NCBI GenBank assembly: GCA_030535915.1
Contig: JAUNQZ010000003.1
Coordinates: forward strand, 1-46,461
DNA from: a bacterium
Lineage (GTDB): Bacteria > Verrucomicrobiota > Kiritimatiellia > RFP12 > DVOR01
Reading direction: 5' to 3'
DNA: 46,461 nt
A model generated the notes under the pieces. That model was not told the DNA's origin and searched no databases. It saw nothing but the letters and a program-made list of their open reading frames with translations. Of the stretch, positions 24,534-36,357 are shown in pieces (position 1 is the first letter of the stretch; each line of letters starts with the position of its first letter). The position numbers and the translations under genes were made by a program.

Positions 24534-24608
24534 TGGCTCCGAAGGCAGGATTCGAACCTGCGACCAAGTGATTAACAGTCACCTGCGCTACCACTGCGCC
24601 ACTTCGGA
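24534..24608 (-). tRNA. tRNA-Asn (GTT), second copy
   Basis: This 75-nt cloverleaf has acceptor arm TCCGAAG/CTTCGGA, discriminator G and an encoded CCA. The anticodon loop is CTGTTAA (anticodon GTT) and the T-loop is the standard TTCGAAT. It is identical over all 75 bases to the copy at 24631-24705. Confidence 0.97.
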
Positions 24609-24630
24609 TTAAAAATCACTGAAGAGGAAT

Positions 24631-24705
24631 TGGCTCCGAAGGCAGGATTCGAACCTGCGACCAAGTGATTAACAGTCACCTGCGCTACCACTGCGCCACT
24701 TCGGA
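24631..24705 (-). tRNA. tRNA-Asn (GTT), first copy
   Basis: This is the same 75-nt tRNA as the downstream copy, with encoded CCA. The spacer between the copies is 22 nt. It follows the CAT tRNA by 26 nt in the same operon. Confidence 0.97.
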
Positions 24706-24731: not shown

Positions 24732-24807
24732 TGGTGGCGGGTGAGGGTCACGATCCCCCGACACGCGGATTATGATTCCGCTGCTCTACCAACTGAGCTA
24801 ACCCGCC
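24732..24807 (-). tRNA. tRNA-Met (CAT), elongator type, with unusual T-loop
   Basis: This 76-nt cloverleaf has a perfect 7-bp acceptor (GGCGGGT/ACCCGCC), discriminator A and an encoded CCA. The anticodon arm is GCGGA-ATCATAA-TCCGC, anticodon CAT. It lacks the initiator features (mismatched 1-72 pair, three G-C pairs in the anticodon stem), so it is elongator Met or a lysidine-modified tRNA-Ile2. The T-loop reads ATCGTGA instead of TTCRANN, exchanging the usual T54-A58 pair for A54-T58. Confidence 0.9.
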
Positions 24808-24825: not shown

Positions 24826-24855
24826 ATAATAACAAATCCCCCCTCCTCCCGTCAA
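24826..24855 (-). promoter_or_regulatory. Promoter of the tRNA operon
   Basis: On the - strand TTGACG (24855-24850) and TATTAT (24831-24826) are separated by 18 nt. Transcription would start about 12 nt before the 5' end of the CAT tRNA. Confidence 0.75.
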
Positions 24856-24930
24856 GCACTTTTTTCAAAAAAAATAAAATTTTTATCATTTCCTTTCTCC
24901 TTCTTATCTCCCTTTTATCGAGTCATTTTT

Positions 24931-25018
24931 TCAAGACCACCGAAACGCATCGTCAAAGTCGCCCATTTTGCTCGTCAAAACAGCCGACTTTGAGCTTCAA
25001 AATGGGCGACTTTGAAAA
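24931..25018. repeat. Array A: four units of an exact 22-bp period repeat
   Basis: Units begin with TCAA at 24931, 24953, 24975 and 24997, exactly 22 bp apart. The form is TCAAR, nine variable bases, TTTGA (units 3 and 4; TTTGC in unit 2; lost in unit 1), then a 3-base spacer. Bases 24954-24970 and 24998-25014 (units 2 and 4) are exact 17-bp reverse complements, so unit 3 would sit in the loop. Unit 3 is a diverged direct copy of unit 4. The ends of each unit are themselves complementary (TCAAA/TTTGA). Confidence 0.85.
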
Positions 25019-25035
25019 CCCTTGAAAAATCAGGC

Positions 25036-25259: not shown

Positions 25260-25883
25260 ATGGCTTACTTAATGTTATTGGCAAATGGCTTTGAAGAAAT
25301 TGAAGCCTTAGGAACATTGGATTTATTACGCCGTGGAGGTGTAGAGGTCACGACCTGTACCCTCAATCAAACACCTCTTGTATTAGGCGCACATGGCATT
25401 GCCGTAGAAGCAGAGCTCGTTTTAGGAGAACTCGACAGCACACTTTTTGATGGCGTCATTTTACCCGGCGGTTTAGGCGGTTCTCAAGCCTTGGCATCAA
25501 CCGAGGGCGTTCTCCAATTATTGCGTGAATATAATGAACAAAAGAAGCTTATCGCCGCTATTTGCGCAGCGCCAGCATTGGTTTTAACCGCCGCCAATAT
25601 CATTGACAATCGCCAAGTGACCTGTTATCCTGCAGATGAATTTATTGACCTTTTGGGTGAAAATTATGAACCCGCCGTGGTCGTCTGCTGTGAAAATTTA
25701 ATCACAGGTAATGGTCCTGGGAGCTTCGTTGATTTCGCTGAAGCGATCCTCTGCACAGCAAAAGATGTCGAAACGGCTGAAAATGTCTTGCGTGATGCCC
25801 TTTTCCTCGGCGAAGAAGAAGAGGACGAAACCGATGCATTAGAGGATTATCTCGATTGCGTCCTTGAAAAGCGTGACGAATAA
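25260..25883 (+). CDS. DJ-1/PfpI family protein
   Basis: This 207-residue protein has the DJ-1/ThiJ fold: conserved Glu15 (FEEIEAL), VILPGGLGGSQAL, nucleophile Cys102 in AAICAAPALVL and GNGPGSFVDFAEAIL. Homologues (YajL, DJ-1) act in protein and nucleotide deglycation or oxidative-stress protection, with debate over activity. The last 30 residues or so are highly acidic (LGEEEEDETDALEDYLD), an addition beyond the usual family length. It is the first gene of the rpoN operon, 8 nt before rpoN. Confidence 0.92.
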   Translation: MAYLMLLANGFEEIEALGTLDLLRRGGVEVTTCTLNQTPLVLGAHGIAVEAELVLGELDSTLFDGVILPGGLGGSQALASTEGVLQLLREYNEQKKLIAAICAAPALVLTAANIIDNRQVTCYPADEFIDLLGENYEPAVVVCCENLITGNGPGSFVDFAEAILCTAKDVETAENVLRDALFLGEEEEDETDALEDYLDCVLEKRDE

Positions 25884-36234: not shown

Positions 36235-36259
36235 AACATGCCTCTAAAAACCTTTAAAA

Positions 36260-36347
36260 TCAAGGCTTATGGTTTTGACATTCAAAACCACTGATATTGA
36301 ACGTCAAAGTCAATGGTTTTGCGCTTCAATTTCAGCGGTTTTGATTT
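36260..36347. repeat. Array B: four units of an exact 22-bp period repeat
   Basis: TCAA begins units at 36260, 36282, 36304 and 36326, exactly 22 bp apart. TTTGA, ATTGA, TTTGC and TTTGA fill positions 15-19 of the units. Units 2 and 4 are reverse complements over 17 of 19 bases, matching the unit 2/unit 4 relation of array A. Units 1 and 3 are direct copies at 14 of 18 bases. Unit 2 matches unit 3 of array A at 14 of 19 bases, so the arrays are one family. Confidence 0.85.
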
Positions 36348-36357
36348 TAAGGAAAAA

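What the first reader, a model, noticed from the sequence alone, without database searches (positions are those of the whole stretch)
24931..25018. Intergenic array with an exact 22-bp period and internal palindromes (array A)
Four TCAA-initiated units start exactly 22 bp apart. Each follows TCAAR-N9-TTTGA-N3, with unit 1 degenerate at its end. The variable centres differ between units, yet units 2 and 4 are perfect 17-bp reverse complements, so two unrelated-looking centres are maintained as a complementary pair with unit 3 between them. The 22-bp step is close to two helical turns, so proteins could bind all units on one DNA face; as RNA it could switch between small TCAAA/TTTGA hairpins and the long unit 2/unit 4 stem. 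It is not a CRISPR, simple tandem repeat or standard terminator, and I know of no described family like it.
Basis: seen in the sequence. Interest (0 to 1): 0.85.

Follow-up and report, generated by a model that had tools for sequence, protein, structure and literature searches.

The report
Evenly spaced four-unit 22-bp DNA arrays
This intergenic stretch is one of dozens of copies of a short DNA element, built from about four 22-base units, that is scattered between genes in a few uncultured gut bacteria of one genus; in one relative every copy has exactly four units and no two copies lie closer than 3.4 kb, which suggests a job in organising the chromosome.

Summary
The array is real. It is one of about 40 places in this genome that carry a ~100-bp intergenic element: a head (AAAAGCCTTTAAAATCAAGGC...) plus three more units, CAA-N11-TTG every 22 bp. 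A second copy lies at 36246-36353. Among 162 genomes of the order, 22-bp-phased arrays occur only in some members of one Kiritimatiellae genus.

I read one relative in full (G010, 1.40 Mb). It has 137 such arrays: four units each at steps of 22, 22 and 22 or 23 bp, with no partial or decayed copies. They lie between genes and favour divergent gene pairs (odds ratio 4.6). None lies within 3.4 kb of another; about 30 such close pairs are expected. Units 0-1 and 2-3 co-vary as inverted pairs. No strand or G-U bias was seen, which points to DNA rather than RNA.

The elements are not CRISPRs, terminators, Rfam RNAs or RAYT-linked REPs. The nearest known kind is the E. coli BIME, which impedes supercoil diffusion. 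My reading is a phased binding or hairpin module acting as a BIME-like chromosome-domain element (about 45%). The main rival is a miniature mobile element with target immunity. No protein partner was found; positions are not conserved between species; spacing is inconclusive in the window's own genome.

The parts
24917..25020 (+). element A: one full copy of the interspersed element (degenerate head plus three units)
   Evidence: profile match; model R1 match 24924-25020, E=1.2e-22
24931..24952 (+). unit 0 (head unit) of element A, TCAAGACCACCGAAACGCATCG
24953..24974 (+). unit 1 of element A, TCAAAGTCGCCCATTTTGCTCG
24975..24996 (+). unit 2 of element A, TCAAAACAGCCGACTTTGAGCT
24997..25018 (+). 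unit 3 of element A, TCAAAATGGGCGACTTTGA plus AAA; complementary to unit 1
36246..36353 (+). element B: second copy in the window, complete head AAAAACCTTTAAAATCAAGG and three units with other cores
   Evidence: model R1 match 36247-36348, E=1.5e-20
36260..36344 (+). four units of element B, starting at 36260, 36282, 36304 and 36326
24826..24855 (-). promoter-like site of the tRNA operon (TTGACG-18-TATTAT); element A lies upstream of it
   Evidence: consensus match only
24732..24807 (-). tRNA-Met, nearest gene to the left of element A, transcribed away from it
25260..25883 (+). DJ-1/PfpI family gene to the right of element A, transcribed away from it

Best explanation
The array is one copy of a clade-specific, intergenic, interspersed DNA element made of about four 22-bp-phased, partly complementary units. 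It most likely works as DNA. An unidentified DNA-binding protein, or a supercoil-driven pair of hairpins or cruciforms, occupies successive units two helical turns apart. Copies spread along the chromosome mark or insulate chromosome or supercoil domains, in the way E. coli BIMEs are thought to. Shown: the family, its exact phasing and its intergenic location; and, in relative G010, the fixed four-unit module, the lack of decayed copies, the pair covariation and the even spacing (even spacing also in G016). Inferred: protein or cruciform occupancy, the insulating role, and that the window's genome uses its copies in the same way.
For: Period 22 and its multiples only. 137 four-unit arrays in G010, all-or-none, with no partial copies although non-core positions share only 43% identity. 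No pair closer than 3.4 kb, about 29-31 expected; G016 P about 1e-4. Divergent regions enriched, odds ratio 4.6, p=1.8e-8. Inverted covariation of units 0-1 and 2-3 and better folding than unit-permuted chimeras, z=-6.1. No strand or G-U signal. BIMEs are candidate supercoil barriers (PMC6907758) and measured domains are about 10 kb (PMC3820752), close to the 10.1-kb mean interval.
Against: No partner protein or in vivo data. Array positions are not shared between G000 and G010 above background (6 of 36). Host (G000) copies include two-unit forms and a few side-by-side copies, and its spacing test is weak. The main G016 subfamily has direct repeats and folds poorly, so hairpins are not universal. 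Eleven of the 17 genomes of the genus show no clear arrays.
Confidence: 0.45

Rival explanations
1. Miniature mobile elements: the arrays are non-autonomous transposon-like repeats carrying phased transposase-binding sites or hairpins, and their even spacing comes from target immunity during insertion rather than from function.
For: Species-specific amplification with conserved ends in G000; 75-95% identical copies of about 500 bp in G016; positions not conserved; patchy presence within one genus. Tn7-type ends hold multiple 22-bp TnsB sites (PMC9371665); target immunity would give an exclusion zone.
Against: No partial or decayed copies in G010 although copies are very diverged. No RAYT/Y1 transposase in G000, G003, G010 or G014. 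No two arrays bound a gene cassette in G010. The Mu/Tn7-type transposase search was uninformative.
Confidence: 0.3
2. Operator arrays: sites of a transcription regulator placed upstream of promoters.
For: Enrichment in divergent regions in G010; in G016 and G003 the array precedes a sigma70-type promoter and the gene to the right is in the same direction in 13 of 14 cases.
Against: Convergent regions carry arrays as often as tandem ones; no orientation relative to genes in G010; a 3.4-kb exclusion zone is not expected of operators; in G016 the fixed promoter distance follows from copying of one long repeat.
Confidence: 0.15
3. Functional RNA: the arrays are transcribed hairpins such as terminators, attenuators or mRNA stabilisers.
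For: Arrays fold better than shuffles (mean z -3.8 in G010, -4.3 in G000); the host head read on the other strand resembles a short terminator.
Against: Equal folding of both strands, no G-U preference or gene orientation, enrichment between divergent genes, no terminator-like site in element A or B, no Rfam match.
Confidence: 0.05
4. Mutational by-product: complementarity comes from template switching or local gene conversion between units, without selection on structure.
For: Within-array similarity is both direct and inverted in G000, as local homogenisation would give.
Against: In G010 only the inverted pairs 0-1 and 2-3 co-vary, with no direct excess for those pairs. It does not explain the fixed unit number, the absence of decay or the even spacing.
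Confidence: 0.04

Closest known systems
BIME (bacterial interspersed mosaic element; REP arrays of E. coli)
   Same: Intergenic mosaics of partly palindromic units in inverted order, many copies, proposed supercoil-diffusion barriers (PMC6907758)
   Different: Here exact 22-bp phasing, a fixed four-unit module, even spacing and divergent-region enrichment (G010); no RAYT found in four of the array-bearing genomes; the sequence is unrelated to what I recall of REP
REPIN/REP with RAYT (GTAG and CGTC superfamilies)
   Same: Small dispersed palindromic intergenic repeats that can form inverted pairs (PMC3116915, PMC3733652)
   Different: No RAYT in G000, G003, G010, G014; no GTAG or CGTC tag in the aligned consensus; four phased units
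Tn7-like/CAST transposon ends (TnsB sites)
   Same: Several 22-bp binding sites in a row (PMC9371665); target immunity could give spacing
   Different: No cargo or transposase linked; units in inverted pairs with changing cores; transposase search inconclusive
Plasmid iterons
   Same: From general knowledge: short repeats at about 22 bp on one side of the helix near DnaA boxes; G003/G016 copies have TTATCAACA next to the array
   Different: Tens to over a hundred dispersed chromosomal copies; inverted pairs in G010; no linked rep gene looked for or seen

Membership tests
REPIN/REP-RAYT | a RAYT (Y1_Tnp, PF01797) gene in the genome | tested here: not met
   none in G000, G003, G010, G014; two hits in G016 (one over cut-off), one weak hit in array-less G012
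REPIN/REP-RAYT | GTAG or CGTC tag next to the palindrome | tested here: not met
   no such tag in the host alignment or G010 consensus
BIME | intergenic mosaic of inverted palindromic units | tested here: met
   G010 arrays intergenic, units 0-1 and 2-3 inverted
BIME | made of REP sequences | tested here: not met
   unit consensus CAA-N2-TCGSCGA-N2-TTG; compared with REP from general knowledge, no REP sequence was aligned here
BIME | binds gyrase/IHF or blocks supercoil diffusion | not testable with these tools
   needs experiment
CRISPR | identical direct repeats with unique spacers | tested here: not met
   units differ, 5-nt joints, inverted pairs
Intrinsic terminator | GC-rich hairpin followed by a T run, 3' of a gene | tested here: not met
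   no site at element A, none within element B; A lies between divergent genes
Known RNA family | match to an Rfam model | tested here: not met
   only tRNAs in the window; none in five relative loci
Tn7/Mu-like element ends | cognate transposase with Mu-transpos_C domain | tested here: inconclusive
   no hit in 17 genomes, but controls gave none either
MITE | target-site duplication and empty sites | not testable with these tools
   no strain-level relatives available

The most novel reading that the evidence does not exclude
A dedicated chromosome-wide architectural code: quantised four-site DNA arrays, phased at two helical turns and set at near-regular intervals (about 10 kb in one species, about 30 kb in another), recognised by geometry or hairpin structure rather than fixed sequence, whose cores turn over between species while the geometry is kept.
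Probability: 0.3. Interest if true: 0.92.

Novelty: new variant of a known kind. Interest (0 to 1): 0.72.

Why it matters
Bacterial chromosomes are thought to be divided into supercoil domains of about 10 kb, but the barriers are mostly unidentified and appear randomly placed (PMC6907758, PMC3820752). A sequence element that occurs in one exact form, has no decayed copies and never lies within 3.4 kb of another would be a concrete candidate for a genetically encoded barrier, or else a clear natural record of target immunity by a small mobile element. Either reading can be tested with contact maps, footprints or strain comparisons. Fixed geometry with changing core sequences also raises the question of how a partner recognises the arrays.

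Tried and rejected
Exact two-unit pattern in 39 relatives: only the host has it; cores differ between species, so a model and a generic three-unit pattern were used. Viral contigs: seven hits, none a comparable array; one is a simple tandem repeat. RAYT link rejected. Mu/Tn7-type transposase search uninformative. Gene cassettes bounded by two nearby arrays in G010: none, as no two arrays are closer than 3.4 kb. Covarying terminal repeats outside the array: none. Single units as selected palindromes in G010: rejected, self-complementarity is below expectation (z -3.7 to -7.0). Orientation relative to the replication fork: an early impression became non-significant with all arrays (68 of 115, p=0.06). 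Conserved positions between G000 and G010: not above background. Papers on Kiritimatiellae repeats: none relevant.

Full report
Observation. The window has four TCAA-initiated units at 24931, 24953, 24975 and 24997, exactly 22 bp apart; the second and fourth are reverse complements over 18 nt. The two-unit pattern occurs 16 times in the 1.67-Mb host genome (both strands) and never as the reversed control. A sequence-only model built from 14 host copies finds about 40 distinct places at E<=1.4e-4; many lie at contig ends, so some may be two halves of one copy. A second full copy lies in the window at 36246-36353.

Anatomy in the host (G000). The element is about 100 bp: AAAAGCCTTTAAAAT, a head unit like CAAGGCYGATGATTTTG, then three units CAA-N11-TTG with 5-nt joints, ending TTTGAAAA. 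Cores are mostly GTCGCCCA/T or its complement, in either orientation, with rarer ones (ACAACCGAC, CCACTGA). The head reads GCCTTGATTTTAAAGGCTTTT on the other strand, a weak terminator-like sequence. Some copies have only two units. Complementarity between units 1 and 3 exceeds expectation (p=0.0013), but direct similarity does too. Copies average 69% identity, 92% at most.

Distribution. Among 59 relatives the model finds matches in G000, G003, G009, G010, G014 and G016 of the same genus and one marginal match elsewhere (G058, E=0.006). The G009 matches look like a different AT-rich element. A generic CAA-N11-TTG x3 pattern at 22 bp, searched in 162 genomes of the order, is found only in G000, G010, G014 and G016, plus one simple tandem repeat in G099. 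A core-based pattern stands clearly above its control in G010 and G000, with a modest excess in G013 that I did not follow up. The closest named relatives are Kiritimatiellae gut genomes, including Candidatus Spyradenecus. In G003, G014 and G016 arrays sit inside a longer shared repeat with CTACAGCGGCTTC on the left (27, 7 and 25 copies) and, on the right, a sigma70-type promoter ahead of genes such as phosphoglycerate kinase, as I read its N-terminus. G014 has quite different, often perfectly palindromic cores in the same geometry.

Whole-genome test in G010. All 1.40 Mb were read. Without assuming the motif, the most over-represented intergenic 7-mers in the first 400 kb are TCGCCGA and TCGCCCA, with ATGGGCG among the next. 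Triples of cores occur only at 22 bp and its multiples among all periods 10-59. A unit profile gives 137 four-unit arrays. They are all-or-none: 134 score at least 25 and only 138 score at least -4, against 0-2 for a 24-bp control. Two-unit pairs outside arrays are no commoner at 22 bp than at other periods, and a fifth unit follows in about 5% on either side. Outside the cores, arrays share only 43% identity, so they are not recent copies, yet spacing and unit number are kept. The profile was trained on the chained arrays, so the counts describe arrays of this core type only.

Spacing. No two G010 arrays lie closer than 3.4 kb. Random intergenic placement gives 31 such pairs on average; placement weighted for divergent regions and length gives 29, with a minimum of 15 in 3000 draws. 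The coefficient of variation is 0.60 against 0.87, the mean interval 10.1 kb, and both contigs behave alike. In G016, within-contig intervals are 17.6 kb or more; on eight contigs of known length the chance is about 1e-4. In the host the test is weak (p=0.03 on four contigs), and a few copies lie side by side (C166, C54, C145).

Location and strand. In G010, 47 of 78 divergent regions of at least 150 bp carry an array, against 51 of 210 tandem and 16 of 60 convergent ones (odds ratio 4.6, p=1.8e-8; genes called by a simple ORF method). Arrays have no orientation relative to neighbouring genes. In the host, the copies with both neighbours known are 14 tandem, 3 convergent and 3 divergent, so this preference is not seen there. 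Element A lies between a tRNA operon and a DJ-1 family gene transcribed in opposite directions.

Structure. In G010 only unit pairs 0-1 and 2-3 co-vary as inverted repeats (z=3.9 and 3.8; no other pair shows an excess), over the outer 11 positions. Arrays with units permuted between copies fold less well (z=-6.1); keeping the pairs restores most of the energy, keeping units 1-2 restores none. Single units are less self-complementary than expected. RNA folding is equal on both strands and G-U pairs are not favoured. This points to DNA hairpins or dyad-symmetric binding rather than RNA. It is not universal: the main G016 subfamily has direct repeats and folds poorly.

Interpretation. Fixed geometry, no decayed copies, covariation and even spacing argue for a maintained DNA-level module. 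The nearest functional analogue is the BIME, proposed as a supercoil-diffusion barrier (PMC6907758); 10 kb is close to measured supercoil domain sizes (PMC3820752). The main rival is a small mobile element with target immunity; Tn7-type ends have multiple 22-bp sites (PMC9371665). That rival is favoured by species-specific amplification, long similar G016 copies and non-conserved positions, and opposed by the absence of partial or decayed copies in G010 and of a RAYT transposase. An operator array is possible for the G016-type repeats but does not explain convergent locations or the exclusion zone. The function is inferred, not shown, and the strongest evidence comes from a relative rather than from the window's own genome.

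Noticed in passing
G016, G003, G014 (e.g. L154, L162, L365): A 250-520-bp interspersed repeat with CTACAGCGGCTTC, GTTATCAACA/GTTGATAAC motifs (clearest in G003 and G016), the 22-bp array and a sigma70-type promoter precedes unrelated genes, like a copied promoter.
   Followed up: partly
G016 C1:49028-49132, C10:21284, C36:63265-63369: A second 22-bp-period family in G016, direct repeats of CAATGGATTTGACTTTGAAATC, with different cores.
   Followed up: no
G009 (L164-L166): Model matches belong to a different AT-rich repeat, preceded by AATATGGTACCATATT palindromes.
   Followed up: no
G010 contigs C1 and C2: Cumulative GC skew of the two contigs fits one circular chromosome with replichores of about 711 and 693 kb, although completeness is listed as 50%.
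   Followed up: no
G013: The core-based 22-bp pattern gives 22 hits against 1 in the control, an excess that may mean a further array-bearing species or coding repeats.
   Followed up: no
window 24534-24705: Two near-identical tRNA-Asn genes in tandem, 97 bp apart, next to tRNA-Met.
   Followed up: no
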